Shown: positions 11,445 through 37,999 of the stretch, piece by piece
Numbering within the stretch: position 1 is the stretch's first letter
Layout: the number at the start of each line of letters is the position of its first letter
Source: a virus
Length of the DNA stretch: 64,000 nt
IMG/VR virus record: IMGVR_UViG_3300048672_000970
Coordinates: 62,001-126,000 of that record
Strand: one strand, 5' to 3'
The notes under the pieces: generated by a model
The model's database searches: none
What the model was told of the DNA's origin: nothing
Seen by the model: only the letters and a program-made list of their open reading frames with translations
Translations under genes and position numbers: made by a program

Positions 11445-11529
11445 CCGCCATTGTCGAAACTAGAAAACGAAGTGGACTTAAAATCCACCGCCCTTGACGG
11501 GCTTGCAGGTGCAAATCCTGTATGGCGGA
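11445..11529 (+). tRNA. tRNA-Leu (anticodon TAA)
   Basis: Acceptor CCGCCAT/ATGGCGG, anticodon stem GTGGA/TCCAC with loop CTTAAAA, class II variable arm GCCC-TTGAC-GGGC and T arm GCAGG/CCTGT. The long variable arm and TAA anticodon fit leucine (codon UUA). CCA is not encoded. Confidence 0.8.
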
Positions 11530-11543
11530 CTATGCGCATATTT

Positions 11544-11618
11544 GCGGGTATAGTTTAGTTGGAAAAACTACTGCCTTCCAAGCAGAAGTCGCCGGTTCGA
11601 TTCCGGCTACCCGCTCCA
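11544..11618 (+). tRNA. tRNA-Gly (anticodon TCC)
   Basis: Acceptor GCGGGTA/TACCCGC, anticodon loop CTTCCAA, T arm GCCGG-TTCGATT-CCGGC, discriminator T and encoded CCA. Reads GGA codons. Confidence 0.85.
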
Positions 11619-11621
11619 AAT

Positions 11622-11709
11622 GGGAACGTATACCTCTAAGGAGAAGGCCCGGACTGTAAATCCGGTGTCCGAAAGGACTCGCTGTGATCGTTACACAGAG
11701 TTCCCACCA
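11622..11709 (+). tRNA. tRNA-Tyr (anticodon GTA)
   Basis: Acceptor starting GGGAAC and ending GTTCCC, anticodon stem CCGGA/TCCGG with loop CTGTAAA, class II variable arm (GTCC-GAAA-GGAC) as in bacterial tRNA-Tyr, discriminator A and encoded CCA. Confidence 0.85.
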
Positions 11710-11716
11710 GAACAAC

Positions 11717-11791
11717 GCGTCTATCATACAATGGATAGTATAACGGTCTTCTAATCCGTAAATTTAGGTTCAATTCCTAATAGACGCCCCA
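11717..11791 (+). tRNA. tRNA-Arg (anticodon TCT), copy 1
   Basis: Acceptor GCGTCTA/TAGACGC, D arm ATAC/GTAT with A at position 20 (a known arginine identity base), anticodon loop CTTCTAA, T arm TTAGG/CCTAA. The discriminator reads C before CCA, which is unusual. Reads AGA codons. Confidence 0.75.
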
Positions 11792-11798
11792 GAACAAA

Positions 11799-11874
11799 TG
11801 GGGTATAATTCAATTGGTTAGAATAGAAAACTTCTAATTTTCCTATCAGGGTTCGATTCCCTGTGCCCCAACCA
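11799..11874 (+). tRNA. tRNA with anticodon TCT, copy 2, different body
   Basis: Acceptor TGGGGTA/TGCCCCA beginning with U1-A72 as in many glutamine tRNAs, D arm ATTC/GAAT without A20, anticodon stem GAAAA/TTTTC with loop CTTCTAA, T arm CAGGG/CCCTG, discriminator A and encoded CCA. The anticodon predicts Arg, but the body differs from copy 1, so charging identity is open. Confidence 0.7.
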
Positions 11875-11880
11875 AATAAA

Positions 11881-11906
11881 AAGAGACTCCAACGAGTCTC
11901 TTTTTC
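11881..11906 (+). terminator. rho-independent terminator after the tRNA cluster
   Basis: AGAGACTC-CAAC-GAGTCTCT followed by TTTTTC. Confidence 0.85.
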
Positions 11907-12018
11907 ATTCCAACATCATGCGTTTCATAACGGCCGTAAAAACTGTGCTCACGATGGTGCTTAAACTTTGTTTTTGCCAGAACTGGTAATGTCGGTCAAA
12001 ACCAGTTTAACCATCCGT

Positions 12019-12024
12019 TAAATA
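12019..12024 (+). promoter_or_regulatory. late promoter (TAAATA)
   Basis: GTTAAATAC resembles the T4 late promoter TATAAATA. It begins 24 nt before the ATG of the next gene, the same spacing as at five other such sites, with no Shine-Dalgarno sequence between. Confidence 0.6.
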
Positions 12025-12042
12025 CCTAAAACCAATACTCCT

Positions 12043-12663
12043 ATGCTTCTCAAACAACTTCTTTCTGAAATGCCAGTAGCTATTAACACCGAATTGGTCG
12101 ATTCTGGTGATGAACCTTTTACGGTCTTTTTCATGTCTGATGACACTATGAAACGCCGTGGATATAGAGAGATAGGTAAAAAGGGTAAAGTTCATATCAT
12201 GCTCAGTAAAAACAATCAAATCTGCGTGGCTGGATTTGAAGATATTCGGCATGATGGAACTTCTGGTTTCAAGGTTTTAGGGATGTTAGAGTTCAAAATG
12301 CAGCTCAATCTGGGCATCGACCTGCATACACAAGGGCAAATGGTGCAGGTGGAACTGGTTGAGGTATCTGACCAATTCAAAGAGCTTGGATTGGGCAGTT
12401 TCATGTATCATCGGGTGGTGCAGTCTGGCTTGACGTTGGTTTCAGACAATCAACAATATCTTGGCGGACAATCACTCTGGCGAAAGATTGCGAAAGCGCA
12501 TATGGCTGATGAAGTGGTCTATGTCATGCAGAAAGGGAAGTTACTCTCTGATAGTGATGGACAACCTATCGAGTATGATGGCAAGAACATTCCGGATTCG
12601 AGTATTTGGAGTGAAGATGCTACTCACAAGCACACCTTGCTGATTTACACAAAACGGGGGTGA
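12043..12663 (+). CDS. GNAT-like acetyltransferase with capsid-targeting-like N-terminus
   Basis: 206 residues. Residues 1-9 (MLLKQLLSE) end in L-S-E, matching the (L/I)-x-E cut site of T4-type prohead proteases. VEVSDQFKELGLGSFMY near residue 106 resembles the acetyl-CoA loop (Q/R-x2-G-x-G/A) of GNAT enzymes, and the following LVSDNQQYLGGQSLWRKI is typical of a GNAT tail. It sits alone behind a late promoter. The acetyl target is unknown. Proposed: head-packaged acetyltransferase. Confidence 0.65.
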   Translation: MLLKQLLSEMPVAINTELVDSGDEPFTVFFMSDDTMKRRGYREIGKKGKVHIMLSKNNQICVAGFEDIRHDGTSGFKVLGMLEFKMQLNLGIDLHTQGQMVQVELVEVSDQFKELGLGSFMYHRVVQSGLTLVSDNQQYLGGQSLWRKIAKAHMADEVVYVMQKGKLLSDSDGQPIEYDGKNIPDSSIWSEDATHKHTLLIYTKRG

Positions 12664-12770
12664 TGGATGTTGGGTATGCTAAAGAAGGGGTGTTTGAACT
12701 TACTGCGCCGGAGCTGAAAAAGATGCAACAAATGCTTGAAGCGCGTTTCAGAATCCATTACAATCGATGA
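12663..12770 (+). CDS. short peptide (35 aa)
   Basis: The start overlaps the stop of the GNAT-like gene (TGATG) and the end overlaps a possible start of the next gene. The sequence MDVGYAKEGVFELTAPELKK is well formed for a small helical protein. Coding is likely but not certain. Confidence 0.4.
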   Translation: MDVGYAKEGVFELTAPELKKMQQMLEARFRIHYNR

Positions 12771-12796
12771 ATCGAAACCAACTGGAGAAAAATTTC

Positions 12797-13489
12797 ATGG
12801 CTGACCAGCAACCGCCGAAACCGGCACGAAATGAAATTGATGAAGAAGAACGTTCGGCACTTAAGCAATGGTCTGAAAATACTCTACTTCTTTCACGCGC
12901 TGAAGCTGATGTCTTCATGAAGGAGAACGCTGAACACATTTATTATAAGTACGGCCTCGGAATGGAAATCATTCAGCGATGTGATACACGCGAACAGTTT
13001 ATTAGTTTCATGCTACGCTCTGCCGTACATTATGACCCGCACAGTTGGATGAACGGTACGCCATATTTTGTGAACGCTGGGGAAAAGCGGAATCTGTGGC
13101 TGTCGACGGAAGCTATTGAACGTATCGTCAAGGAGCATCCAGAGCAATGCTTGGTGGATTCGTGTACGTTTGACTCTGAAGAATTGGATAACGTTTTTGG
13201 GTTTGAAGAATACCGAGTGATGCCTTACAAGGTAGCATCTGAACCGCAATACCTGTTTGATTTCAATAGATTCTATTGGGATGAGCGTGGCGACCGGCGT
13301 TTTCATTTTCAAAAAGTTGAAATGCCTGTTTATGACATCGCCGATTTTGAAGTGGCGGCGGATTTGGAATTTCCGTTAATGGTCAGTTTGATTTCGCATG
13401 ACACGTTTGACCGCTGTGGGTCGATTACGGGGTGCCAAGTGACCATTTACCCGGTAGACCTTGAACCTGGGATTATTCGGGTGGTGTAA
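12797..13489 (+). CDS. hypothetical protein
   Basis: 230 residues from the ATG behind TGGAG; an in-frame ATG 30 bases upstream overlaps the previous stop. The N-terminus is acidic and helical (NEIDEEERSALKQWSENTLL), then alpha/beta. The C-terminal ITGCQVTIYPVDLEPGIIRV resembles a closing strand seen in other genes of this region. Function unknown. Confidence 0.65.
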   Translation: MADQQPPKPARNEIDEEERSALKQWSENTLLLSRAEADVFMKENAEHIYYKYGLGMEIIQRCDTREQFISFMLRSAVHYDPHSWMNGTPYFVNAGEKRNLWLSTEAIERIVKEHPEQCLVDSCTFDSEELDNVFGFEEYRVMPYKVASEPQYLFDFNRFYWDERGDRRFHFQKVEMPVYDIADFEVAADLEFPLMVSLISHDTFDRCGSITGCQVTIYPVDLEPGIIRVV

Positions 13490-13505
13490 TAAAGTGTAAC
13501 GAGGC

Positions 13506-13534
13506 TTGACCGTTGTGAAAACCATTGGTATCAT
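13506..13534 (+). promoter_or_regulatory. early promoter (TTGACC-17-TATCAT)
   Basis: Preceded by AAAGTGTAACGAGG. A weak dyad (ATTGGT / ACCAT) surrounds the -10. Confidence 0.75.
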
Positions 13535-13564
13535 TAACCATCTAATCCCAAACAGGAGCAACCT

Positions 13565-13837
13565 ATCAACTATTTCGCCATCCGCCACAAACCTAGCAGT
13601 TTGTTCCTCACGCCCCGCTCATCTAAAACCGTTGCAACCGATGTTAAAAACATCCTTGACGGTGCAACGTTCACGCTTGGGCAAGGGAGTGAGTTAGCGG
13701 TCAAATTTTCCACAAAGCCGCTGGCCGAAGCGGCGCTAAAGTTCAACTACCCTAGCGAAATTTATTACGTCTGGGTGGGTACAGTGTGTCACATCGTTTC
13801 TGCTGAAACGCTTGAAATCATTGAATTGGAGTGGTAA
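13565..13837 (+). CDS. hypothetical protein with probable ATC start codon
   Basis: 90 residues if translation starts at ATC six bases after AGGAG. The resulting N-terminus (M/I)NYFAIRHKPSSLFL matches the paralogues at 4910 (MKFFAIQH...LFL) and 13840 (MKYYVLQL). The first standard-type start in frame, a TTG 12 codons downstream, would remove this conserved strand and has no ribosome site. Either AUC is used as a rare start or the ATG is mutated. Function unknown. Confidence 0.6.
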   Translation: MNYFAIRHKPSSLFLTPRSSKTVATDVKNILDGATFTLGQGSELAVKFSTKPLAEAALKFNYPSEIYYVWVGTVCHIVSAETLEIIELEW

Positions 13838-13839
13838 CC

Positions 13840-14136
13840 ATGAAATACTATGTTCTGCAACTTCTTGGAGACAATGTGTTCCTGTCGCCGTGGAACACCG
13901 GCGTTGATCAAGCCTATAACACATCAAGAGATTTGTCCGCAGTATGTAGCGATACGCTCGTTAGCGCCCTTTCCGAAGCACTTCAATTTGCCTCGTTGTC
14001 AGACATCATTTTGGCATTCTATCGATGCGAGAGCATCAACATCTTTTGCCCATTCACCAAAAGGTTCAGATATGTCACCCTGGAAGACTTTGAAGTGATT
14101 GAAGTCTCTGTTAAAATGAAGACTGTTGAAATCTAA
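13840..14136 (+). CDS. hypothetical protein of the M-K-Y-Y-V-L family
   Basis: 98 residues starting MKYYVLQLLGDNVFLSP and ending in strands EDFEVIEVSVKM, like the gene at 8037. It starts two bases after the preceding paralogue, suggesting tandem duplication. Function unknown. Confidence 0.65.
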   Translation: MKYYVLQLLGDNVFLSPWNTGVDQAYNTSRDLSAVCSDTLVSALSEALQFASLSDIILAFYRCESINIFCPFTKRFRYVTLEDFEVIEVSVKMKTVEI

Positions 14137-14142
14137 CATCGG

Positions 14143-14171
14143 TTGCAAAACATTGCAGCCGGTGTTAGAAT
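14143..14171 (+). promoter_or_regulatory. promoter of the CAT tRNA (TTGCAA-17-TAGAAT)
   Basis: Ten bases upstream of the tRNA. AACATCGG and CCGGTGTT pair over 8 positions with one G-T around the spacer, again a dyad promoter. Confidence 0.65.
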
Positions 14172-14180
14172 AAAGTTTTA

Positions 14181-14255
14181 GGGCCGGTAGCTCAATGGCA
14201 GAGCAGCGAACTCATAATTCGACGGTCAATGGTTCAATTCCATTCCGGCCTACCA
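14181..14255 (+). tRNA. tRNA-Met or tRNA-Ile2 (anticodon CAT)
   Basis: Acceptor GGGCCGG/CCGGCCT with a G-T end pair, D arm GCTC/GAGC, anticodon loop CTCATAA, T arm AATGG/CCATT, discriminator A and encoded CCA. It lacks obvious initiator features. Sequence alone cannot separate elongator Met from lysidine-modified Ile (AUA). Confidence 0.8.
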
Positions 14256-19881: not shown

Positions 19882-20026
19882 TAAAAAGCATGTCGAAGCC
19901 TTGAAAATCTGGCTGCAAACTGGCATATGGAAAATCCAGTTTGCAGTCGAAGCGCCCTATCTGGATGTGCCAACTCTGGCTAAAGACCGTTACGTCAAGT
20001 TTATTCTAAATGTTCAATCTGCCTGA
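19841..20026 (+). CDS. small hypothetical protein (61 aa)
   Basis: Starts MPIPKPIEQF behind GAAGGGG, overlapping the deaminase gene at its front and the DnaE-like gene at its end. Function unknown; the coupling suggests co-expression with the polymerase-like gene. Confidence 0.55.
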   Translation: MPIPKPIEQFNPANKKHVEALKIWLQTGIWKIQFAVEAPYLDVPTLAKDRYVKFILNVQSA

Positions 20027-20531
20027 CCGAGTTTTACACCCAAACGGGCAATCAATTGTCTCGGCTGAACAGTGTGTTAATTTCCTTCTAAGGGGATTGA
20101 CACCTGTTCATTTTGCGGTTGAAGAACTTACTCCAGATATTATTGAGCATAACCGGCGTAGCGTAGACAAGATACTGTCGGTATCTGAGCTTAAAGAGCC
20201 TGATTTTGATTTATCTTACGCTATCCCCGTTGAATATCAACAACTTGACGTGTGTAAATACTTTTTAGACAAACTTGAAGCTCGGGAAGAATGGCGGTTG
20301 AATGATGCTATAATTGACCGGGTAGAAAATGAATTGGTCTTCATTCAGCGAACCAGTGCAGAAAACTATTTTCGGACAATCATTTACATTGTGGATAGAT
20401 TGAATGCGGAAAAGGTTGTGTACGGTATTGGGCGGGGATCTTCTTGTGCGTCATTTCTCTTGTACATGATTGGGCTACACACTGTTAATCCGATTGAGTA
20501 TGAGATTCCGATGGAAGAATTTTTCCATTGA
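20010..20531 (+). CDS. DnaE-like polymerase core, N-terminal piece
   Basis: 173 residues that align with the thumb/palm entry region of bacterial DNA polymerase III alpha. RVENELVFI matches R-x-E-x-EL-x-VI of DnaE. YGIGRGSSCASFLLYMIGL matches the G-x-GRGS-G-S-x3-Y palm motif, and PIEYEIPMEEFF matches DP-L-x-FERF. It stops exactly where DnaE continues to its PDFDVDF catalytic motif; that motif occurs at the start of the gene at 24176. The PHP and beta-binding domains are absent. Homology is strong by motif; activity of the split pair is inferred. Confidence 0.75.
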   Translation: MFNLPDRVLHPNGQSIVSAEQCVNFLLRGLTPVHFAVEELTPDIIEHNRRSVDKILSVSELKEPDFDLSYAIPVEYQQLDVCKYFLDKLEAREEWRLNDAIIDRVENELVFIQRTSAENYFRTIIYIVDRLNAEKVVYGIGRGSSCASFLLYMIGLHTVNPIEYEIPMEEFFH

Positions 20532-20556
20532 CGCTAATTTATAAAGGAGCATAGCG

Positions 20557-20742
20557 ATGGCTACCACATCACGCCGAGGTGCTAAACTGGTTGATTTTGA
20601 TTTGATGGCGATTAAAGCTGCGCTTGCGCAGCAGGAATCGAACAAAGCGCCAGTGGAGCAACCCGTAGAAACACCAGTGGAACAAAATCCACTACCACCA
20701 GAACCAAAGAAAGGAAAAAATGCTAAAGCCACTCAAGAATAA
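20557..20742 (+). CDS. small Pro/Glu-rich protein (61 aa)
   Basis: A short basic helix, then a disordered tail with repeats EQPVETPVEQ and a Lys-rich end. ATG follows AAGGAG. Overlaps the co-chaperonin gene by 23 bases. Function unknown. Confidence 0.55.
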   Translation: MATTSRRGAKLVDFDLMAIKAALAQQESNKAPVEQPVETPVEQNPLPPEPKKGKNAKATQE

Positions 20743-21049
20743 CGTACTAATCCAGTTCCTTGACGAAACTCAGGGGCCGAAGGGAAAGTTTGTGGAACGC
20801 GGTTCCAAGTTTCTCATTATCCCTGCACTAGACTCTAACCAACATGGCGTGCCACGATGGGCGAAGGTTGTTGCTGTCGGCCCTGAAGCTGACGGTGTTG
20901 CTGTCGGTGATTTCGCCCTGGTTGAACCGATGCAATGGTCATTCCGAACTGAGCCGATGGAAGAATTTGGCAACGCGCCCATCTGGCGGACGTTTGACCA
21001 TAACATCCTCATGGTTACTGACGATGAAAGCTTGACGTATCAGTTCTAA
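20720..21049 (+). CDS. GroES-like co-chaperonin (gp31-like)
   Basis: 109 residues. LKPLKNNVLIQFLDE at the N-terminus is the GroES signature strand; a mobile-loop region (residues 15-30) and GVAVGDFALVE strand follow, as in phage co-chaperonins such as T4 gp31. It would replace GroES on host GroEL to fold large phage proteins such as the capsid protein. ATG follows AAAGGAAAAA. Its 3' end carries a promoter. Confidence 0.75.
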   Translation: MLKPLKNNVLIQFLDETQGPKGKFVERGSKFLIIPALDSNQHGVPRWAKVVAVGPEADGVAVGDFALVEPMQWSFRTEPMEEFGNAPIWRTFDHNILMVTDDESLTYQF

Positions 21050-21060
21050 GCTGTCAGAAT
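21032..21060 (+). promoter_or_regulatory. early promoter (TTGACG-17-CAGAAT)
   Basis: The -35 lies in the last codons of the co-chaperonin gene. TCATTCCATCG follows, as in the first promoter of the window. No TGTAAC box is visible. Confidence 0.6.
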
Positions 21061-21095
21061 TCATTCCATCGCAACACGAACCGCCGAGTTAACAA

Positions 21096-22037
21096 ATGAT
21101 CGCTTACTTCTGCTTCATCGCCGCTGCTCTCATCGAAGCCCTGGCGATGATTATTTCTGTCAACGGTATGGCAGCATATTTCGGCATGAACCTGATCATC
21201 ATGGCCCTGGCGGCGACGATTGACATTGGCGCCATTGCTTGCTGGATTGGCACCTATCAATACTGGAACAAACTCAATGCCAAAATGAAAACCATTGGCG
21301 TCGCGCTCTGCGCTGGCACGATGATTTTCTCTGCATCGGGTGTTGCTAGTTTCCTGATGGCTGACTTCCAAAAGGCAGCGGTCGGTGTTAAGGAATCTGC
21401 ACTGCGTATCGACCAACTGCAAGTTGAACGTCAGCGCCTGATTGCTCGCAAGACCAGCATGGAACAGCAAGTTGCTGCTCTGCGCGAAGACATGGTGACG
21501 GCGAAGATTCGTATGCAAAATACGTTCGCTGCTGAAAAGCAAACCGTAGACAACCGTCTTAACGCCGTTGAAACCGAGCTGAACACGCTTGAACAGCAGC
21601 ACGTCACTACGGCTGCTAAGGGTGGCACCATCATGTTTGTTGCTGAAATGTTCGGTCTGACTGAAATGCAAGCTACCAAGTGGGTTGTCGGCTTCGTGGT
21701 GTCCATCTTCACGCCGCTGGCTTTCTTCCTGATGCTGCTGGGCAATTTCATCAAGAACCAATCGGACGAAAAGCCGGCTGAAGAAAAGGTTGTTGCTGAA
21801 GAAAAGGTTGCACCGGAAGTTGAACCGGAAGTTACTGAAGAACCGGCGCCGGAAGTTCACATCGAAGAACTGTACCCGGAACTGACGTTCACGTCGAAGT
21901 TCTCTGCCCCGGCCAAGCCTGCCGCCAAGCGTGGCCGGCCGACCAATGCTGAACGTGCTGCCCGCCTGGCTGCTCAACAAGCCGCTGAAGCTGCAGCGCA
22001 AGAATCTGGCTCGACTCGTCACCTGTACGCTGACTGA
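21096..22037 (+). CDS. multi-pass membrane protein with coiled coil and AT-hook-like tail
   Basis: 313 residues. Three hydrophobic segments lie in the first 80 residues, then a coiled coil (about 85-165), another hydrophobic segment (about 188-212), a Pro/Glu-rich stretch, and a basic tail KRGRPTNAERAARLAA. The GRP core is AT-hook-like. It could tie DNA to the membrane; this is inferred. Codon use is unusually regular and GC-rich compared with neighbours. Expressed from its own promoter and followed by a terminator. Confidence 0.7.
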   Translation: MIAYFCFIAAALIEALAMIISVNGMAAYFGMNLIIMALAATIDIGAIACWIGTYQYWNKLNAKMKTIGVALCAGTMIFSASGVASFLMADFQKAAVGVKESALRIDQLQVERQRLIARKTSMEQQVAALREDMVTAKIRMQNTFAAEKQTVDNRLNAVETELNTLEQQHVTTAAKGGTIMFVAEMFGLTEMQATKWVVGFVVSIFTPLAFFLMLLGNFIKNQSDEKPAEEKVVAEEKVAPEVEPEVTEEPAPEVHIEELYPELTFTSKFSAPAKPAAKRGRPTNAERAARLAAQQAAEAAAQESGSTRHLYAD

Positions 22038-22056
22038 ACCGAAACTGTGCTAAACT

Positions 22057-22080
22057 AAAAGCCCGCATCTGCGGGCTTTT
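22057..22080 (+). terminator. rho-independent terminator
   Basis: AAAAGCCCGC-ATCT-GCGGGCTTTT, between the membrane protein and the clamp loader. Confidence 0.9.
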
Positions 22081-22100
22081 ACACTTTTGAAAGGATAGCT

Positions 22101-23006
22101 TTGCTCAACAAAAATTCTCTTTGGGTCGAAAAGTATCGACCGGCCCACGTGGCAGATGTCGTGTTTTCGTCAGCGGACGTTAAGGCAAAGTTTGCCGCGT
22201 ATGTTGAAAAGAAAACCATCCCTAACCTATTGTTTTACGGTTCACCCGGAACAGGCAAATCATCCATCAGTTCCGCATTGCTCACAGACCTTCTAATCGA
22301 CCCTGATGACATCCTACGTGTCAATTGCTCGAAGGATAAGATTGATGCCCTACGTGACCGTGTAGACCTGTTCTCGCGGTCTATGCCGCGCGGCGAGCTG
22401 AAAATTGTACAGCTTGAAGAACTGGACGGGATGAGTTTGGATGGGCAACGTCTGCTTAAAACCCTGGTTGAAGACGTGTCGGAATATTGTCGGTTCATTG
22501 CGACCTGTAACGAACCCCATAAAATCATTCCTCCCATCAAATCTAGATTCACTTCATTCCATTTCGCCAAACCAGATTTCGACCAAGTATTTTTTAGACT
22601 GGCTGACATTCTCATTGCTGAACAGGTATCATTCACTCCTGAAGATTTTGACAAAATCATTCAGATGCATTACCCGGATATTAGACAGACCATTCAAGCT
22701 TTGCAGGATTCGTCTATTTCTGGCGCATTAACAATTAACACCGATACACTGGAAGCTGACTGGAAACCTGCACTCCTTAATGCACTTTCTAATTCAGATT
22801 GGCAGGCCGCTCGGCAAGTTGTTTGTTCTTCACTCAGTAAAGAAGATTTGCCAATGATTTACCCATTCCTGTTCACGGCTCTGCGCAATCATCAAAAATT
22901 TAACGTGATGTGCAAAATCATCGCTGAATACCAGTATCGAAGTGCGTTTGTGGCAGACCCTGAAATTCAACTGGCTGCAATGTTTTTCTCGCTGGCGGAT
23001 TGCTGA
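22101..23006 (+). CDS. clamp loader ATPase subunit (gp44-like, RFC/DnaX type), TTG start
   Basis: 301 residues. SLWVEKYRP is the classic RFC/gp44 N-terminus; GSPGTGKSS is Walker A; RFIATCNE is sensor 1; IKSRF stands where most have SRC. Walker B reads IVQLEELD, with Glu where Asp is usual. It would load the sliding clamp with the small subunit next door. The only start that keeps WVEKYRP is TTG, six bases after AAGGATAG. Confidence 0.85.
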   Translation: MLNKNSLWVEKYRPAHVADVVFSSADVKAKFAAYVEKKTIPNLLFYGSPGTGKSSISSALLTDLLIDPDDILRVNCSKDKIDALRDRVDLFSRSMPRGELKIVQLEELDGMSLDGQRLLKTLVEDVSEYCRFIATCNEPHKIIPPIKSRFTSFHFAKPDFDQVFFRLADILIAEQVSFTPEDFDKIIQMHYPDIRQTIQALQDSSISGALTINTDTLEADWKPALLNALSNSDWQAARQVVCSSLSKEDLPMIYPFLFTALRNHQKFNVMCKIIAEYQYRSAFVADPEIQLAAMFFSLADC

Positions 23007-23008
23007 AA

Positions 23009-23521
23009 ATGGCTTATAACGTCGATTTGTTCGGTTTTCTTAATAGCTTGTCAAAGGGTGTTAATCCGTATAGAGAGATGACGGAAATAGAACAGAAAGA
23101 ACTGCAACCAGTCATCATTTATCGATGGCTTTCCGGATGCAGTTCAGGGCATCAAGTTCAAAAACTGGCCGAGCTGAACCATTTCATTTTCACCATCTCT
23201 GATAAAGCGACTCTGTTCGATTTGATGGCCGCTGCATGCGATGGGAAAAGCTATCGGTACAAATGGATTAAACCGGCTGGCTCACAATCTGCGCCCATCT
23301 GCTTGAAAGTGATAATGACGGCTTATAATTGCAGTGAGAGGGAAGCAATCGGTTATCTTCCTAAGTTAGATGCAAATGATATCTATGAATCTGCTGAAAT
23401 GCAGGGAATGGATGATGCGACGTTAACCAAGCTTATTCAGGAGTTGAAAAATGGACATGCAAAAACTACGTTCACAGGCAGCGAGCCGACGAAACGAGCA
23501 AAGCGAACAAAAAGAGCCTGA
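23009..23521 (+). CDS. clamp loader small subunit (gp62-like)
   Basis: 170 residues. LMAAACDGKSYRYKWIKP followed by ICLKVIMTAYNCSEREAIGY matches the conserved core of T4 gp62 (M-A-x-x-GK-x-Y-x-KW ... N-x-x-x-AI-x-Y). It directly follows the gp44-like gene, as in T4. The C-terminus is basic (PTKRAKRTKRA). No good ribosome site, so coupling to the upstream gene is likely. Confidence 0.75.
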   Translation: MAYNVDLFGFLNSLSKGVNPYREMTEIEQKELQPVIIYRWLSGCSSGHQVQKLAELNHFIFTISDKATLFDLMAAACDGKSYRYKWIKPAGSQSAPICLKVIMTAYNCSEREAIGYLPKLDANDIYESAEMQGMDDATLTKLIQELKNGHAKTTFTGSEPTKRAKRTKRA

Positions 23522-24197
23522 AATTTCTGGATGGAAGTGTGAGTATTGCCAGAAATCATTTGCCCGAGAATCTACATTCATGCGGCATTCATGTCGGGAG
23601 CGTGAGCGAGCCATTGAACTGAAATCGTTTGTTGGGCAAAAAGCGTATGGGTATTATGGTGAATGGATGAAACAACGTCATCGCAGTGTTCCAAAAATAG
23701 AAACGTTTGCCACGTCGCAATACTACACGTCGTTCGTTAAATTTGCCAAATGGGCCGAGCAAGTAAATCTACCTTCAATCACTAATTACATCAAGGTGAT
23801 GATTGACCAAGGATTTGATAACCCCCACTATTGGGTTGATGCTGAACGGCATGCCATGTATCTAGAATGGTACGATAACGCAAAATCGCCCCAAGATGCA
23901 TTTGTTGATTCAATCGAGTATATTGAAAGCTACCTAGAATCCAATCATGTTACTGGCAATGTCTTTGAGCATTTAGGAATCAGAGAACTCGGCCAGCTAA
24001 TCAAGAAACGGAAAATATCTATGTGGTTTGTGTTAGCATCACCCGCCTGCAAAGATTTTATCATCCGTGCCAAATCAGACCCGGACTTTAATCAATTCAT
24101 TTCGGCATACGATGTTAACGCATGGGGAATCAGAATCAAAAATAACACAGCGATGATTAAGGAGTTTGCCGAAGTATGCAAAGCGATGAATCTGTAA
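23451..24197 (+). CDS. zinc-finger protein between clamp loader and polymerase piece
   Basis: 248 residues. Near residue 30 CEYCQKSFARESTFMRHSC has the spacing of a C2H2/C2HC zinc finger (C-x2-C-x12-H-x2-C here). The remaining 200 residues are helical and basic with no named domain. The start overlaps the clamp loader gene by about 70 bases and the end overlaps the DnaE-like piece. This position suggests a replication or late-transcription accessory role. Confidence 0.7.
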   Translation: MDMQKLRSQAASRRNEQSEQKEPEISGWKCEYCQKSFARESTFMRHSCRERERAIELKSFVGQKAYGYYGEWMKQRHRSVPKIETFATSQYYTSFVKFAKWAEQVNLPSITNYIKVMIDQGFDNPHYWVDAERHAMYLEWYDNAKSPQDAFVDSIEYIESYLESNHVTGNVFEHLGIRELGQLIKKRKISMWFVLASPACKDFIIRAKSDPDFNQFISAYDVNAWGIRIKNNTAMIKEFAEVCKAMNL

Positions 24198-24775
24198 TTT
24201 TTTCAGCCGACGTTGATATTGATACTTGTTCCTCGTTCAACGCCTCATCTTTTTTCGGATGGACGAGAGCATCAGTCATTGATGAAAATATCTCTCCGCA
24301 TCCATGCGGAGTTTATCCACAACCCATTCCGGTTGACCACTTAACGGGACTGGCGGCGATGCCATACGATTTTGCCGAGCTGGCCGGCTACAATAAAATA
24401 GATTTCCTTCATTTGGCCGTCTATGATAATTTCACATCTAGACAAGAGATTTTAGAACTGGACGCGAAAGAACCGAAATGGGAGTTACTTACGAAAGCTT
24501 CCGTCTGCCCCAAATTGTTCCAGTTGGCTAAACATCATGCGTTGCTGGCAAAAATTAAACCGACTTCGGTGTTAGAATTGGCCGATGTCCTTGCACTCAT
24601 CAGACCTGCAAAACGGCAGTACGAAGATTTGTATCTGGCGCAACGAGGGAAAATTCGACCTTTGCTCTTTTTGAAAGAATTGTCGGAAGCGTATGCATTC
24701 AAGAAATCGCACGCGATTAGCTATGCGAAAGTAATCTGTTTGCAACTGCACCTAATTGAGCTTAACAGGCTCTGA
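24176..24775 (+). CDS. DnaE-like polymerase core, C-terminal piece with catalytic residues
   Basis: 199 residues. FSADVDID near residue 9 matches the catalytic PDFDVDF of DnaE. HPCGVYPQ matches HAGGV; YNKIDFLHL matches VKFDFLGL with the catalytic Lys and third Asp; KPTSVLELADVLALIRP matches the F-x-D-x-IAL-x-RPGP block; and AYAFKKSHAISYA matches GYGFNKSHS-AYA. The loop between DVDID and HPCG is about 28 residues against roughly 90 in E. coli. With the gene at 20010 it rebuilds a PHP-less palm/fingers core. Whether it polymerises is untested. Confidence 0.75.
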   Translation: MQSDESVIFSADVDIDTCSSFNASSFFGWTRASVIDENISPHPCGVYPQPIPVDHLTGLAAMPYDFAELAGYNKIDFLHLAVYDNFTSRQEILELDAKEPKWELLTKASVCPKLFQLAKHHALLAKIKPTSVLELADVLALIRPAKRQYEDLYLAQRGKIRPLLFLKELSEAYAFKKSHAISYAKVICLQLHLIELNRL

Positions 24776-25148
24776 AAATTGCTTTACGTCTGCGAATTTT
24801 AACTTCGGTGTCAAACTCAAACTTGAACATTTTACCGTGAAAGCGATTGATGGTATGGATATCAAATGATTTGTAAATGCGGGAGGTGGCGGATGTTAAT
24901 CCTCGGCGGGAGAATTCGATTGACAGAGGATGTTTTGCTGAGTTTGTTTGTTCCCATTCTTTCGCCACTGCAATAATTTTGTGCGGGTCTAACCCTTCAG
25001 AATCGGCATAGTCGAGAATGTATGCGAACAAAACTTCATCTTTGATGTTGTCCACGATTGCCAAATACGAGTTGTTATCATGGTCGATAAAACTGAGAAT
25101 GAATTGGTTAGACTCGTCGCTCACATATACAAATTTTGAATCAATCAT
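24762..25148 (-). CDS. hypothetical protein on the minus strand
   Basis: 128 residues, alpha/beta (FVYVSDESNQFILSFIDHDN at the start), Arg/Lys-rich at the end. It is the only minus-strand gene in the replication block and has its own late promoter exactly 24 nt from the ATG with no Shine-Dalgarno sequence. It lacks the (L/I)-x-E peptide of other such genes. Function unknown. Confidence 0.65.
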   Translation of the reverse strand: MIDSKFVYVSDESNQFILSFIDHDNNSYLAIVDNIKDEVLFAYILDYADSEGLDPHKIIAVAKEWEQTNSAKHPLSIEFSRRGLTSATSRIYKSFDIHTINRFHGKMFKFEFDTEVKIRRRKAIFRAC

Positions 25149-25166
25149 CGTTTTTCACATTTTCAT

Positions 25167-25172
25167 TATTTA
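25167..25172 (-). promoter_or_regulatory. late promoter (TAAATA, minus strand)
   Basis: Reads AGTAAATAATG on the minus strand, 24 nt from the ATG. Confidence 0.6.
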
Positions 25173-25197
25173 CTTCACCAAAACAGGAGAATCCTCA

Positions 25198-26517
25198 ATG
25201 AGTAAAACCAACTTTTTTGAAATCATGCACGCTTGCGAATCCACTTCCGGGAAGGGAGCAAAGGAACGCATTCAGCAACAACTAACCCTGCTGGATGAAA
25301 CGGGCCAAAAGCTCGTAGAAGCCGCGCTAAACCCGTTTAGGACGTTTGGAGTGAAGAAGGTGAAGGTGAAAGGTTCTAACGGCTCTGGCAGCGTTCTAGA
25401 CCCCTTCCTGAGCCTTTTGGACAAGCTGGAAAAGCGAGAATTGACGGGGAATGCCGCGAAGGACAGTATCGAATCTGTACTCAGTCAATACAGTAAAGAA
25501 GAACAGAATTGGCTTATTCGAGTCATTATGAAGAATCTTCGAGCCGGTTTTACGGAGAACACTTATAACAAAGTGTTCCCGGATGCTGTCCCCGTTTTTG
25601 ATATCATGCTGGCTGATAAATATGATACGGATGAACAACTGAAACAAAACATTAAGTTCCCGGTATATGCTGAACACAAACTTGATGGGCAGCGGACAAT
25701 CGCGTTCCATTGTAATAATAACTCAACCGTGTATTATGCCCGAGGCGGCAGGCTGTCTGAACATCTGAATGGGTTGTTTGATTCGGAATTGCAACTACTG
25801 CGTGATATGTATGGATATGATATTGTCATTGACGGTGAAGTGATGGGTGAGTATTTCACCCAAACCATTAATGCCAAGAAGGGTGGTAATGACGATGCAA
25901 AACAAGCACTGGTGTTCCATGTTTTCAATATCATCCCAATGGATGAATGGAAAACTCGAAAGGTTTCTAGTAAGCTTTATGCGATGGCAACTGAACGCAA
26001 TGCCATGCTGGCCGCGCTGCATCAAGTTATGGCTCCCGCAAAATCTAAAATCGTGCCAGTAGAAGGAAAGATTGTTAACTCATTTGAAGAAGCTCAGGAA
26101 TTCTTTTCAGAAGTCATTGAATTTGCAGAAGGTCTTATCCTGAAAAATCCAATGGCTCACTATGAATTCGACCGTTCTCGTGAGTCTCGTGCGTGGATTA
26201 AATGGAAACCGTTTTTTGATGTAGACCTTGAAATCTATGATTGGTATTATGGCAATCCCGGTACTCGTCTAGAACATACTGTCGGTGGAATTAAATGCCG
26301 GGGTGCTGATGAGCATGGTAATAAAATCGATACCAATGTTGGCTCAGGTTTTTCTGATGAATTGCGTGCTGATATCCTCACCAACTTTGCTTCAAAGTAT
26401 TGCAACAAGATGGTTGAACTTCGTTACCAAGAATTGACCCTTGCTGAAAATGCATCAACCTACTCGCTCCGATTCCCGACTTTTAGAAAGATGCGTCCTG
26501 ATAAATTCGCCATGTGA
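25198..26517 (+). CDS. ATP-dependent DNA ligase
   Basis: 439 residues. AEHKLDGQR holds the lysine that is adenylated (motif I, K-x-DG); VIDGEVM is motif III; EGLILKNP is motif IV; WIKWKP is motif V. This gives a complete nucleotidyltransferase domain with a C-terminal OB fold region (YDWYYGNPGTRLEHTVGG), as in T4 gp30. It seals nicks in replication and recombination. The ATG behind CAGGAGAATCCTCA is chosen; an upstream in-frame extension has no ribosome site and overlaps the minus-strand gene. Confidence 0.9.
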   Translation: MSKTNFFEIMHACESTSGKGAKERIQQQLTLLDETGQKLVEAALNPFRTFGVKKVKVKGSNGSGSVLDPFLSLLDKLEKRELTGNAAKDSIESVLSQYSKEEQNWLIRVIMKNLRAGFTENTYNKVFPDAVPVFDIMLADKYDTDEQLKQNIKFPVYAEHKLDGQRTIAFHCNNNSTVYYARGGRLSEHLNGLFDSELQLLRDMYGYDIVIDGEVMGEYFTQTINAKKGGNDDAKQALVFHVFNIIPMDEWKTRKVSSKLYAMATERNAMLAALHQVMAPAKSKIVPVEGKIVNSFEEAQEFFSEVIEFAEGLILKNPMAHYEFDRSRESRAWIKWKPFFDVDLEIYDWYYGNPGTRLEHTVGGIKCRGADEHGNKIDTNVGSGFSDELRADILTNFASKYCNKMVELRYQELTLAENASTYSLRFPTFRKMRPDKFAM

Positions 26518-29699: not shown

Positions 29700-30749
29700 A
29701 TGAAAATGAAAAAAGTAAAAGTAGTTATTGGCCGTTTTAGTGGCCTACACAATGGGCACATCAATCTACTGAATGTTGCTGCATCCGATGCTGACCTTGT
29801 GATCGTTGTTATTGGGAGTAGTTTCATCGCCCCGAATCCAAAAAATCCGTTTTCTTTTAGTGACCGGCGATACATGCTCCAAGAAGCAGTTGAAGCGATG
29901 CCATCAATGAATAACGTCGGTCTGCGAGTGGTTGGCGTTCGTGATTATGCTAACAACTCAAAGTGGATTGCCGAAACGGAACGAGTCGTCCATGAAGCCA
30001 TCACCGAATTTATGCCCGGTGAAAATCATGAAATCACACTGGTTGGATATGAGAAGGATGAAACTTCTTCTTATGTACACATGTTCAAGTGGAAGAAATA
30101 TCTGCTGTCCGACGCTGTCAATTTCAATAACCGGGTACTGTCTGCTACCGATATTCGTGAAGCACTGTTTAACGGGCAGCTAGAAAGTATCAAAGAGGGT
30201 GTGCCGGAAAGTACCTATCGGTTTCTATCCCGATATGCACAATCTGATGCGTTCAATTTGATGCGAGCTGAAAAGCAGTATTATACGGATTACCAAGCAG
30301 CGGCATCGGTGGCACCTTATCCTATCATTTACCAAACGTCTGATGCGGTGGTTGTCCAATCTGGACACATTCTACTAATCGAACGTAAGCACATTCCGGG
30401 CCAAGGACTTCTCGCGCTCCCTGGTGGATTCCTGCACACGAATGAACTGCGGATTGACGGGATGGTTCGTGAACTGCGGGAAGAAACTAGGATGAAAGTT
30501 CCCGAACCCGTTATTCGGCGGTCGGTGGTTAAATCTGAAGAATTTGAAGATCCGAATCGAAGCCTTCGGGGCCGTGTCATCACGAAAGCTTTTCTGGTAC
30601 AATTGGACGATACAAAAGACCTGCCGGCCGTCAAGGCGGCAGATGATGCAAAGAAGGCGTTTTGGTTCCCTTTGAGCCGCATTGATGAAATTCAGGACAG
30701 GTTCTTTGAAGACCATTACGACATTATCAAAACGTTGACTGGAGTCTAA
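29700..30749 (+). CDS. nadM: bifunctional NMN adenylyltransferase / Nudix hydrolase (NadM-Nudix)
   Basis: 349 residues. The N-terminal domain has GRFSGLHNGH (the nucleotidyltransferase G-x-F-x3-H-x-GH motif) and VLSATDIRE (the S/T-x-x-R motif) and would make NAD from NMN and ATP. The C-terminal domain carries a Nudix box near residue 245 (GGFLHTNELRIDGMV then RELREETRM), with Arg-Met where Gly-hydrophobic is usual. The same fusion is known from bacteria and T4-like phages. With the NAMPT gene nearby it forms a two-step nicotinamide-to-NAD route. ATG follows AAGGAGTCAAGA. Confidence 0.88.
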   Translation: MKMKKVKVVIGRFSGLHNGHINLLNVAASDADLVIVVIGSSFIAPNPKNPFSFSDRRYMLQEAVEAMPSMNNVGLRVVGVRDYANNSKWIAETERVVHEAITEFMPGENHEITLVGYEKDETSSYVHMFKWKKYLLSDAVNFNNRVLSATDIREALFNGQLESIKEGVPESTYRFLSRYAQSDAFNLMRAEKQYYTDYQAAASVAPYPIIYQTSDAVVVQSGHILLIERKHIPGQGLLALPGGFLHTNELRIDGMVRELREETRMKVPEPVIRRSVVKSEEFEDPNRSLRGRVITKAFLVQLDDTKDLPAVKAADDAKKAFWFPLSRIDEIQDRFFEDHYDIIKTLTGV

Positions 30750-31045: not shown

Positions 31046-32455
31046 ATGAATGCAAATAATCCCGCCCTCCGTTTCATGAACACGAATCTCATCCTGGCCG
31101 CTGACTCGTATAAGACGAGCCAGTATCCGATTTTCCCGGATAGCCAAGAAGGGCTGTATGTGTACATTGAGGCGCGGAGTAAGGGTGATATCATTGTTCC
31201 AGCCGGCATTAAGGCCATGCTTGAACGGTATCTCAGTACGCCAATCACTCAGGAAATGATTGATGAAGCCGAACAGTTCATCACCGGGCATGGCGAGCCG
31301 TTTAACCGTGAAGGATGGGAATACATCCTGAATCAATATGGCGGTTGGCTTCCGTTCACGATTCGAGCTATTCCGGAAGGCATGCCGGTTCCGTCGAGCA
31401 TTCCGCTGTTCACGGTTGAATGCTCTGACAAGAAGGCTAAATTCGCTGCGACGTATATTGAAACATGGTGTCAGCGAGGTGTGTGGTATCCTACTACCAT
31501 TGCTTCGCAAGGCTATGAAGCGAAAAAGGAAATCAAGCGGTATTACGAAATTTCTGGCGCAGAAATGAGTGATCTGGCGTTTGGTCTTCTAGATTTTGCT
31601 GGCCGCGGTTTTACTTGTGGCGAACAGGCGCAACTTGGCACGATGGCGCACATGTACAATTGGCTCGGCACTGATACGATGGAAGGTGTTCTGTTCACTA
31701 ACAACCTGTACGGCTGTGAAATGGCAGGATTTTCTGTCCCAGCGTCCGAACACAATAATCAAATTTCGTTTGGGGAAGAAAACGAATATGAATATGTGAA
31801 AAAGATGCTGGACACGTATGCCAAGCCTGGAAAGGTCGTTAGCATTGTCATTGATGGATATAATGCACACCAGTGTGTTGACATGCTGTGTGAACAGTTT
31901 GGCGATTTCATCAAAACGAGTGGTGCTTTGGTTTGTGCACGTCATGATTCCGGCCTCGCCGAAGAACAGATTAGCTGGCTGCTGAATCGACTGGCTAAGA
32001 CGTTCGGTTATACCATTAACGCGAAGGGGTACAAAAAGCTCAATTGCGTGAAGGTGCTGTGGGGTGATGGCATCAATCAAATGACCATTCGGAGCCTGTA
32101 CGGTTTCGTTGTGGCTAACGGATGGGCTGCAAATAACATCACTCTCGGTTCTGGTGGTGGTCTGATGCAATCGTGCACCCGTGACACTTACAAGTTTGCC
32201 ATGAAGGGTTCTGCCCAACTGGTGAATGGTGTTTGGAAGGGTATGTCGAAGCGGCCGATTACTGACCCTGGCAAGCGCAGCAAGGAAGGTCGTGTTGCGG
32301 CTTGCCAGATGGCGGATGGAAGTTATGGTTGGTATGACCTTGATATTGGTCTGCCGGAAGGTGCTTCTGATATCATGGAAACCATCTATGATTGCGGAAA
32401 GCGGTTTGAAATGGCAAATCTGGATACCATCCGTGCTCGCACGGGACTGTGGTGA
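31046..32455 (+). CDS. nadV: nicotinamide phosphoribosyltransferase (NAMPT)
   Basis: 469 residues, full length. Visible family motifs: DSYKTSQYP near the start, FGLLDFAGRGF (F-G-x-R-G region), SVPASEHN with the catalytic His, ARHDSG (usually RPDSG), WGDGIN and LGSGGGLMQ. It joins nicotinamide and PRPP to give NMN, which the NadM-Nudix protein turns into NAD. ATG follows AAAGGAG. A terminator follows it. Confidence 0.93.
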   Translation: MNANNPALRFMNTNLILAADSYKTSQYPIFPDSQEGLYVYIEARSKGDIIVPAGIKAMLERYLSTPITQEMIDEAEQFITGHGEPFNREGWEYILNQYGGWLPFTIRAIPEGMPVPSSIPLFTVECSDKKAKFAATYIETWCQRGVWYPTTIASQGYEAKKEIKRYYEISGAEMSDLAFGLLDFAGRGFTCGEQAQLGTMAHMYNWLGTDTMEGVLFTNNLYGCEMAGFSVPASEHNNQISFGEENEYEYVKKMLDTYAKPGKVVSIVIDGYNAHQCVDMLCEQFGDFIKTSGALVCARHDSGLAEEQISWLLNRLAKTFGYTINAKGYKKLNCVKVLWGDGINQMTIRSLYGFVVANGWAANNITLGSGGGLMQSCTRDTYKFAMKGSAQLVNGVWKGMSKRPITDPGKRSKEGRVAACQMADGSYGWYDLDIGLPEGASDIMETIYDCGKRFEMANLDTIRARTGLW

Positions 32456-35774: not shown

Positions 35775-36367
35775 TGCGTTCAGTAGTCATCAACCTATTC
35801 GCCGGCCCTGGAGCTGGTAAATCAACCACTGCGGCTCGTTTGTTTTCATCCCTGAAGCTGCTGGGTAAGAATGCTGAACTGGTGCAGGAATTTGCCAAAG
35901 GGGCTGTGTGGGAAAAGCGAAGTCAAAAGCTGTTTGCTTGCCAACCGTATATCACAGGTAAACAAATTTGGCAACAGGCTCGGCTAGCCGATGAAGTGGA
36001 ATTCATGGTATCCGATTCGCCGATTCTGCTAGGGCTGGCTTATATTTCTGACGATGAACCCTCCGAGTATAAATCAGCTTTCCAGACGGTTTTGCTTCAC
36101 GAGTTCAATCGCCATACCAACATCAATTTCTTCATCAAGCGGGCCAAAGCTTATAACCCGAAAGGACGGAATCAAACTGAGCAGGAAGCGATTGAGAAGG
36201 ATAATGAAGTGAAAGCATTCCTGAATTCTCTTAACATTCCGTTCATTGAAATTTCGGGCGATGCTTCGGCGGACATGCAAATTATCGACCACCTTATTTT
36301 GAAGGGCGTTATCAATGAAGTAAATAATGGAAACACCCTCCATTATGAAACTTCGCCAAATTATTGA
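35771..36367 (+). CDS. P-loop nucleotide kinase-like ATPase (NadR/AAA_28 type)
   Basis: 198 residues. NLFAGPGAGKSTTAARLF is Walker A; EFAKGAVWEKR and VSDSPILLGLAY resemble the acceptor and Walker B regions of deoxynucleoside or NadR-like ribosylnicotinamide kinases. A similar protein is found in many T4-like phages. In this genome a ribosylnicotinamide kinase role would fit the NAD genes, but that is inference. Its end overlaps the next gene and contains that gene's late promoter. Confidence 0.65.
   Translation: MMRSVVINLFAGPGAGKSTTAARLFSSLKLLGKNAELVQEFAKGAVWEKRSQKLFACQPYITGKQIWQQARLADEVEFMVSDSPILLGLAYISDDEPSEYKSAFQTVLLHEFNRHTNINFFIKRAKAYNPKGRNQTEQEAIEKDNEVKAFLNSLNIPFIEISGDASADMQIIDHLILKGVINEVNNGNTLHYETSPNY
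36321..36326 (+). promoter_or_regulatory. late promoter (TAAATA) inside the upstream gene
   Basis: AGTAAATAATG, 24 nt before the ATG of the kinase-like gene, no Shine-Dalgarno sequence. The spacing supports the MKLRQIIE start over an ATG 18 bases earlier. Confidence 0.6.
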
Positions 36368-37196
36368 GTCACCTATTCCTGACGCCGACCCCCTGAATGA
36401 TTTCTATCATCATTCAGGGAGTTTTTCATTTCGTGAAAACATCGGCCGTTTCAAGAAACGATTTCCGATTATTGGGCAAGGGTCATCGAGAGTAGTTTTC
36501 TCCGCACCAATCGATATCAGTTGGTTGAAAGCAAATGATATAGAGAAGGTTGGTAACAAACAAACCGGCATTAAAACCGCCATCAAACTAGCTAAAAATG
36601 CTAAAGGCTTATTTCAGAACGCGGAAGAACTGCGTATCTATGAAATAGCAAAACACATGGGTAAAGAAAGGTTCCTATGCCCTATCATCGATTGGGCTGG
36701 TAATCCAGCTTATAAGAATGATATCGTTTATACCATTTCCAGTGGGCATGATTTTGAAGCGAAGAATGGTTCTAGAAAAGCTCCATTCTGGCTCCAAATG
36801 CCGCAGGTGGTATCTCCATCTGTATCCACCTTCGATAAGTTTTTCAGCAAGCAATTTGGTTTTGTGCCAGAGTTTAGTTTGACTGAATATAATTACATGT
36901 CATCCGATGAGGCTCATGCTGAAATGGCGGCGGATGTATATGCACAGGCGTGCGACCAGTTTTCTAGCACGAAAGAGCAAGAGGATGAATTTGCCGATTT
37001 CCTTTCGTTAGCTAACGCAGTATTTGGTACAGGAATCGTAGACATGAACAACCCCGCTAATTGGGGCATTTTAGATGGGAAGCTGGTCATCATCGATTTC
37101 GGATATTCGGAAGACGTGCAGGATACTTATTCCGGGCATGTCAACATGGAAACTGCCGTTGTAAATAACGAAATAGTTATAAGTATTGAAGAATGA
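36345..37196 (+). CDS. kinase-like protein with capsid-targeting-like N-terminus, paralogue A
   Basis: 283 residues. MKLRQIIE ends in I-I-E. A kinase fold follows: IGQGSSRVVFSAP (Gly-rich loop), TAIKLA (ATP lysine), NAEELRIYE (helix C Glu), DMNNPANWGILDG (catalytic Asp and Asn) and VIIDFG (metal Asp). It is compact, with a short C-lobe. Substrate unknown. It overlaps its paralogue by ATGA. Proposed: packaged protein kinase-like effector. Confidence 0.7.
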   Translation: MKLRQIIESPIPDADPLNDFYHHSGSFSFRENIGRFKKRFPIIGQGSSRVVFSAPIDISWLKANDIEKVGNKQTGIKTAIKLAKNAKGLFQNAEELRIYEIAKHMGKERFLCPIIDWAGNPAYKNDIVYTISSGHDFEAKNGSRKAPFWLQMPQVVSPSVSTFDKFFSKQFGFVPEFSLTEYNYMSSDEAHAEMAADVYAQACDQFSSTKEQEDEFADFLSLANAVFGTGIVDMNNPANWGILDGKLVIIDFGYSEDVQDTYSGHVNMETAVVNNEIVISIEE

Positions 37197-37999
37197 AACT
37201 GCGCGCATTGTTAGAAACTCCCATTGATGATGGGGCAGAAATGCACACGACTAAATCTTGGTTTTCATCTCACACCAAGATGGATTTCAAGAAGACCACT
37301 AAATCATTTTCAAAAACCTACCAAGTATTAGGAAAGGGGTCATCAAGAATTGCTTTCTCAGCCCCTATGAATATTGATGTATTCAAAGCCGATGATTTAA
37401 CGAACGTTAGTCAAAAAGATGGCAAAGCTGATACAGTCATCAAACTGGCATTCAATGAAAAAGGATTGGCTCAAAACATTGAAGAACTGAAACTATGGCA
37501 TCTGGCGAAACAACTTGGGCATGAGACGTTACTTTGCCCTATCATTGATTGGGCCGGTAATCCAGCGTATAAGAATGATACGAAGTACGTTATCGACGGG
37601 CAAAACTTTGCGGCGAAGAACGGAGATAAGAAAGCCCCTTTTTGGATTCAGTTGGCGGCGGTAAAACAGTTAACGTCCGACGCACAATTGTCCAAACTTT
37701 TTGAAGATGAGTTTGGGTTTTCAATCGAAGAACTTCGCTTACTAGCTCTGCACGCTAAACAAACTGGTAAAAAGAATTATACCAAGTCGAATGCCAGCGA
37801 GTTTTTACGGATGTGCGATTCACTCAAAATGTCGGCGGGTGATTTATTCGCGTATGAAAATTGGGGATTGCTGAAAGGTAATTTAGTTATTATCGACTAC
37901 GGTCTAACAGATGCCAATGAACACTTGTACGATTCGGAGGCGGGAGATGTTAAAATCTATTCCTCCGTTGAAAACGGAGAAGTCACTATAAGGATTTGA
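37193..37999 (+). CDS. kinase-like protein with capsid-targeting-like N-terminus, paralogue B
   Basis: 268 residues. MKLRALLE ends in L-L-E. The same kinase-type motifs appear: LGKGSSRIAFSAP, TVIKLAFNEKG, IEELKLWHL, ENWGLLKG and VIIDYG. LCPIIDWAGNPAYKNDT is almost identical to paralogue A, so this is a tandem duplication. The C-lobe is shorter. Substrate unknown. Confidence 0.7.
   Translation: MKLRALLETPIDDGAEMHTTKSWFSSHTKMDFKKTTKSFSKTYQVLGKGSSRIAFSAPMNIDVFKADDLTNVSQKDGKADTVIKLAFNEKGLAQNIEELKLWHLAKQLGHETLLCPIIDWAGNPAYKNDTKYVIDGQNFAAKNGDKKAPFWIQLAAVKQLTSDAQLSKLFEDEFGFSIEELRLLALHAKQTGKKNYTKSNASEFLRMCDSLKMSAGDLFAYENWGLLKGNLVIIDYGLTDANEHLYDSEAGDVKIYSSVENGEVTIRI

What the first reader, a model, noticed from the sequence alone, without database searches (positions are those of the whole stretch)
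20010..24775. Split, minimal DnaE-like polymerase core in two separate genes
The gene at 20010 (173 aa) aligns with DnaE up to FERF, including G-x-GRGSS. The gene at 24176 (199 aa) starts with the next block (DVDID) and continues through HPCGV, NKIDFL, ALIRP and KKSHAISYA. All three catalytic Asp and the key Lys/Arg residues seem kept, yet PHP, tau- and clamp-binding domains are missing and 3.6 kb with six other genes lies between. The pieces flank the co-chaperonin, clamp loader and zinc-finger genes. A two-chain C-family polymerase or primase-like enzyme of about 370 residues would be new as far as I know.
Basis: partly seen in the sequence, partly recalled or inferred. Interest (0 to 1): 0.86.

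Follow-up and report, generated by a model that had tools for sequence, protein, structure and literature searches.

The report
Two-gene minimal DnaE-like polymerase, jumbo phage
This large bacterial virus carries the heart of a bacterial DNA-copying enzyme as two small separate genes that probably assemble into one active site; the arrangement is real and widespread in jumbo phages, but it was already described in 2021 and nobody seems to have tested what it does.

Summary
Gene 20010-20531 (173 aa) is the N-terminal half, and gene 24176-24775 (199 aa) the C-terminal half, of a stripped-down C-family (DnaE / Pol III alpha) catalytic core. They are separated by 3.6 kb and six genes. Sequence families, profile alignment and confident AlphaFold models (pLDDT 94) of each half all point to DnaE and nothing else. 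The split runs through the active site: the GRGSS loop is on one chain, the three catalytic Asp and the steric-gate His on the other. So neither chain should work alone.

The novelty claim does not hold. Iyer et al. 2021 (PMC7824862) described exactly this 'split minimal Pol III alpha' in group 2.2 jumbo phages, beside a B-family replicase. I found both halves, once each, in 11 of 11 phage genomes checked, with a uniform breakpoint and invariant catalytic residues.

Corrections: not every key residue is kept. DnaE's Arg390 position is Glu/Asp, the fingers segment with LRRAMGKK is gone and the thumb is missing. Steric-gate conservation argues against a primase.

Best reading: a two-chain auxiliary DNA polymerase working beside PolB; activity is untested. 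No PolB was found in this 200-kb record, which may be incomplete. New member of a known kind.

The parts
20010..20531 (+). N-terminal half of the split minimal DnaE-like core (173 aa): palm N-part with the GRGSS loop (G139-S145)
   Evidence: PF07733 1.1e-13; phrog_11127 1.9e-30; HHalign to E. coli DnaE 322-393; AF2 pLDDT 94.1; Foldseek to DnaE/PolC
24176..24775 (+). C-terminal half (199 aa): DVDID (D12, D14, D16), HPCGV, K74-x-D76, R143-P144, steric-gate H179
   Evidence: phrog_11778 1.1e-50; AF2 pLDDT 94.3; Foldseek to DnaE E=1.5e-4; invariant residues
20557..20742 (+). short ORF (61 aa) between the halves, no family match
20720..21049 (+). GroES-like co-chaperonin; also lies just after the N-half in relatives
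   Evidence: Cpn10 E=0.016 and phrog_931 E=7e-4; synteny
21096..22037 (+). putative membrane/coiled-coil protein (313 aa), no confident family
22101..23006 (+). clamp loader large subunit, T4 gp44-like
   Evidence: phrog_168 1.8e-71
23000..23521 (+). clamp loader small subunit, T4 gp62-like
   Evidence: phrog_225 1.1e-8, PF16790 0.0036
23451..24197 (+). C2H2-like zinc-finger protein; overlaps the start of the C-half gene
   Evidence: phrog_11058 2.4e-32
24762..25148 (-). conserved convergent gene that overlaps the end of the C-half gene; a minus-strand gene sits in the same place in relatives
   Evidence: phrog_11637 7e-11; synteny

Best explanation
The two genes encode the two chains of one auxiliary DNA polymerase of the C family. 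SHOWN: chain 1 is the first part of the DnaE palm with the GRGSS loop. Chain 2 carries the metal-binding Asp pair (401/403 equivalents), the third Asp (555), Lys553, the RP arginine and the steric-gate His760. The cut falls between the GS loop and the DxD strand, so a working site should need both chains. PHP, thumb, most of the fingers, and the beta-, OB- and tau-binding parts are absent. INFERRED: the chains bind each other and build one palm/fingers site that adds dNTPs to a primer. Lacking a thumb, the enzyme should be weakly processive on its own. It would work beside the phage's T4-like replisome (PolB gp43, clamp loader gp44/62, primase-helicase) on short tasks such as gap filling, primer extension or repair.
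For: Family and profile matches. High-confidence models whose best PDB matches are all C-family polymerases. Invariant D12/D14/D16 (121 of 121 readable), K74, D76, R143, H179 in 123 distinct C-halves; R142/G143/S144 in 80 of 80 N-type ORFs. Their roles in E. coli: Asp401/403/555 catalytic, His760 steric gate (PMC11253446); Mtb Arg667 and His787 line the nucleotide site (PMC8922275). One copy of each half in 11 of 11 phage genomes. Distance matrices of the halves correlate, r=0.75, n=24, p<0.001. Next to replisome genes in relatives. PolB present in 11 of 11 of those genomes.
Against: No biochemical test was found. No complex could be modelled here. The thumb is missing: 23-28 residues between D16 and H42, against about 100 in E. 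coli. The fingers segment with DMLRRAMGKK is missing. The Arg390 position is Glu/Asp in all true N-halves. No PolB or DnaQ was found in the 200-kb record itself, which may be incomplete. The link to repair or lagging-strand work is inference.
Confidence: 0.6

Rival explanations
1. The pair forms a two-chain nucleotidyltransferase on the DnaE/Pol-beta fold that is not a template-directed polymerase, for example an end-tailing, nucleotide-modifying or primer-making enzyme.
For: Thumb and much of the fingers, which grip duplex and template in DnaE, are absent, and the Arg390 position is acidic in all true N-halves. PolB already provides replication in relatives.
Against: The RP arginine and steric-gate His, which line the nucleotide site in DnaE, are invariant. 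The pair lies with replisome genes.
Confidence: 0.22
2. Catalytically dead remnant or regulatory scaffold, for example a dNTP sensor or a partner of PolB.
For: Loss of several DnaE domains and of fingers basic residues.
Against: Metal-binding Asp, GRGS and His are invariant across sequences only 23-57% identical to the window proteins; decay or a purely structural role would not be expected to keep exactly these.
Confidence: 0.12
3. One polypeptide made by trans-splicing (split intein, as in cyanobacterial DnaE, or a split intron), so that a normal single-chain enzyme results.
For: Split polymerase genes with inteins occur in related phages: the PolB of MIJ3 (PMC6892783).
Against: N-halves stop only 3-11 residues after E170 and C-halves start 1-11 residues before D12, too short for intein halves. 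No fused form among the N-type and C-type ORFs collected. Both genes have their own start and stop codons.
Confidence: 0.03

Closest known systems
Split minimal DNA polymerase III alpha of group 2.2 jumbo phages (Iyer et al. 2021, PMC7824862; PHROGs phrog_11127 and phrog_11778)
   Same: Two stand-alone genes, NTP-binding half and metal/template-binding half; no other Pol III domains; T4-like replisome genes; PolB in the relatives
   Different: The halves are unusually close here (3.6 kb; about 11 to 224 kb in the named phages read); no PolB found in this 200-kb record
Bacterial DnaE (E. coli Pol III alpha)
   Same: Palm motifs GRGS, DxD, KxD, steric-gate His, RP arginine; same fold by Foldseek
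   Different: About 370 residues in two chains against 1160 in one; no PHP, thumb, full fingers, beta, OB or tau regions; Arg390 position acidic
Contiguous PHP-less mini-DnaE (about 565 aa) of marine phages and huge phage LR756508
   Same: Phage-borne, no PHP, same motifs
   Different: Single chain, keeps a thumb-length insert, the MYRRAFAKK fingers segment and the ARF arginine; found together with the split C-half in a marine lineage
Truncated Pol III alpha of phage CBB (CBB_328, 172 aa; PMC5259590)
   Same: A RaK2-like phage homologue of the N-half
   Different: That paper read it as a truncation; the passages found do not name the C-half

Membership tests
Split minimal Pol III alpha of group 2.2 jumbo phages | Catalytic core divided into two separate genes at the same point | tested here: met
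   uniform breakpoint, no fused form
Split minimal Pol III alpha of group 2.2 jumbo phages | No other Pol III alpha domains | tested here: met
   No PHP match in the own record or 11 phage genomes, while 14 of 14 control genomes ring; both ORFs end at the core
Split minimal Pol III alpha of group 2.2 jumbo phages | Accompanied by a family B replicase | tested here: inconclusive
   Met in 11 of 11 phage genomes; not found in the 200-kb own record, which may be a fragment
Split minimal Pol III alpha of group 2.2 jumbo phages | RFC-type clamp loader with small subunit | tested here: met
   phrog_168 and phrog_225 at 22101-23521
C-family DNA polymerase (DnaE/PolC) | Catalytic Asp triad (E. coli 401, 403, 555) | tested here: met
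   D14, D16, D76; no substitution in 123 distinct homologues
C-family DNA polymerase (DnaE/PolC) | GRGS loop and steric-gate His760 | tested here: met
   R142-G143-S144 in 80 of 80; H179 in 123 of 123; role from PMC11253446
C-family DNA polymerase (DnaE/PolC) | Palm/fingers fold | tested here: met
   Foldseek of each half: only C-family hits with probability above 0.9; the assembled pair was not modelled
C-family DNA polymerase (DnaE/PolC) | Thumb domain and complete fingers | tested here: not met
   23-28 residues replace the stretch that holds the thumb; the R143-F175 spacer is 31 residues against 116 in E. coli
C-family DNA polymerase (DnaE/PolC) | Template-directed DNA synthesis | not testable with these tools
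   Needs purified proteins
Split-intein DnaE (cyanobacterial type) | Intein halves on the two fragments | tested here: not met
   Extensions at the breakpoint are 1-11 residues only

The most novel reading that the evidence does not exclude
The pair is a working two-chain enzyme on the DnaE fold that has lost the thumb and part of the fingers. It would do a chemistry or task different from any characterised C-family polymerase (for example thumb-less, clamp-independent short-gap synthesis or end tailing), with its active site assembled only when the two chains meet.
Probability: 0.25. Interest if true: 0.7.

Novelty: new member of a known kind. Interest (0 to 1): 0.38.

Why it matters
If active, it would be among the smallest C-family catalytic cores and a natural split through a polymerase active site, carried by phages that already have a B-family replicase. 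Iyer et al. suggest it resembles an ancestral form of the bacterial replicase. The pair is small and uniform across phages, so the question is ready for a bench test. As a sequence observation it has been in print since 2021.

Tried and rejected
Split intein or trans-splicing: rejected, no extensions at the breakpoint. Chance resemblance: rejected by E-values and fold matches. Pseudogene: rejected by invariance of catalytic residues across distant phages. A separate gene supplying PHP: no PHP hit in any of 12 records. A DnaQ partner: above the family cut-off in 8 of 11 relatives but not found in this record, so not a fixed partner. PolB in the own record: not found with Pfam or with the XacN1 protein; in relatives PolB lies about 58 to 176 kb from the N-half and the record has 82 kb upstream of it, so absence is not shown.

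Full report
What is there. The two ORFs are real and correctly placed: 20010-20531 (173 aa) and 24176-24775 (199 aa), same strand, six genes between them. The N-half matches PF07733 (1.1e-13) and phrog_11127 (1.9e-30). The C-half matches phrog_11778 (1.1e-50) but only weakly PF17657 (0.007). Each occurs once in the 200,363-bp IMG/VR record that contains the window.

How it maps on DnaE. HHalign puts the N-half on E. coli DnaE 322-393, ending at FERF. The C-half begins at the PDFDVDF motif, passes KHAGG (510), VKFDF and ALFRP (636-640), and ends just after FNKSH (756-760) (positions). The VKFDF-RPGP stretch is aligned by HHalign; the outer motifs (DVDID, HPCGV, KKSH) are placed by motif and by HMMER segments. 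So D14/D16 correspond to Asp401/403, K74 and D76 to Lys553 and Asp555, R143 to the RP arginine (Mtb DnaE1 Arg667) and H179 to the steric gate His760. The roles are taken from PMC11253446 and PMC8922275. The cut lies between the GRGS loop and the DxD strand, so each chain holds only part of the active site. The position of Arg390 is Glu or Asp in every true N-half. The fingers stretch with DMLRRAMGKK, which the contiguous phage mini-DnaE keeps as MYRRAFAKK, is gone. That these arginines contact the dNTP triphosphate is from my own knowledge, not tested here. The thumb is replaced by a spacer of 23-28 residues.

Structure. AlphaFold models from alignments of 62 and 72 sequences are confident (pLDDT 94.3 and 94.1; pTM 0.87 and 0.71). 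Foldseek against the PDB gives C-family polymerases as the first 14 hits for the C-half and the first 12 for the N-half. E-values are modest (1.5e-4 and 0.011) and TM-scores about 0.5, as expected for reduced pieces of a large enzyme. The complex could not be modelled with these tools.

Distribution. tblastn finds the C-half in 90 phage records, 89 of them nearly full length, and the N-half nearly full length in 45, among many longer DnaE matches. All 11 phage genomes checked (XacN1, RAS14, GAP32, 121Q, XaC1, Atu_ph07, Phosso, SCTP-2, Paride, Vibrio phage 2.275.O, Slicko01) have exactly one of each. The Vibrio record is labelled a partial genome. In fragmentary IMG/VR records one half is sometimes found without the other (G010, G024, G032), which such records cannot decide. 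The distance between the halves runs from about 11 kb (Slicko01) to more than 220 kb (Phosso), so 3.6 kb here is the shortest among the phages read in detail. Order varies: the N-half precedes the C-half in XacN1, RAS14, Slicko01 and this window; the reverse holds in GAP32, XaC1, Paride and others. Neighbourhoods are conserved: N-half, short ORF, GroES-like, gp44; and C-half, convergent small gene, primase, gp41 helicase. N and C distance matrices correlate (r = 0.75, 24 pairs, permutation p < 0.001), as expected for co-inherited genes. This does not by itself prove contact.

Is the site kept? In 123 distinct C-halves K74, D76, R143, K146 and H179 are invariant, and D12, D14 and D16 are present in all 121 sequences that cover them. 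In 80 distinct N-type ORFs R142, G143 and S144 are invariant; the single odd sequence at G139, G141 and E170 appears to be a frameshifted mini-DnaE fragment. Invariance across proteins 23-57% identical to the window argues for catalysis. The steric-gate His argues for dNTPs, against a primase.

Replication context. PolB is present in all 11 genomes, so the split enzyme is an addition, not the only replicase. It was not found in the window's own 200-kb record. Relatives place PolB about 58 to 176 kb from the N-half, and the record ends 82 kb upstream of it, so this is inconclusive. A DnaQ-like exonuclease passes the family cut-off in 8 of 11 relatives, in XacN1 and RAS14 close to the C-half, but is not seen here. 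No PHP domain was found anywhere in the 12 records.

Prior knowledge. Iyer et al. [quoted passage not shown] Earlier the N-half of CBB was called a truncated Pol III alpha. A later search of the library showed no experimental work. The finding is therefore correct as an observation and not new as a kind. What this analysis adds is the exact breakpoint and its uniformity, residue invariance in a larger set, the acidic replacement at Arg390, loss of thumb and fingers segment, exclusion of inteins, one-to-one co-occurrence in 11 genomes, and a marine lineage that also carries a contiguous mini-DnaE (33 of 33 loci with enough upstream sequence).

Judgement. That the two genes are the halves of one C-family-derived enzyme: about 0.85. 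That it synthesises DNA on a primer-template as an auxiliary polymerase: about 0.6. The specific task (gap filling, primer extension, repair) is inference.

Noticed in passing
L094:16079-17806, L201-L279 (IMG/VR marine contigs): A contiguous PHP-less mini-DnaE of about 565 aa lies 4-8 kb downstream of a split C-half homologue in 33 of 33 loci with enough upstream sequence; no split N-half was found in these fragments (35-91 kb contigs checked). Such phages may carry split and contiguous DnaE cores together.
   Followed up: partly
L282 (LR756508.1, 46361-50016): A 484-kb uncultured phage has the contiguous mini-DnaE and neither split half.
   Followed up: partly
L199, L200 (records G011, G009): PolB ORFs of 1265-1270 aa with an insertion of about 400 residues near residue 590 of the 882-aa XacN1 PolB, probably an intein.
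   Followed up: no
L008 record (Slicko01), L009 record (Paride), L006 record (Atu_ph07): PolB matches lie in two separate open frames (578+322, 825+379, 578+418 aa), so PolB itself seems split in several of these phages.
   Followed up: no
window 29700-30749 and 31046-32455: NadM-Nudix-like protein (read from the sequence) and nicotinamide phosphoribosyltransferase (phrog_448, 8.6e-116) side by side: a phage NAD salvage pair.
   Followed up: no
window 25018-26517: Probable ATP-dependent DNA ligase downstream of the C-half, read from the sequence only.
   Followed up: no
window 36327-37196 and 37193-37999: Two adjacent proteins of the same unknown family (phrog_4301), a possible tandem duplication.
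   Followed up: no
window 11445-14255: Five tRNA genes (Leu, Gly, Arg, Arg, Met); the two Arg genes share anticodon TCT.
   Followed up: no
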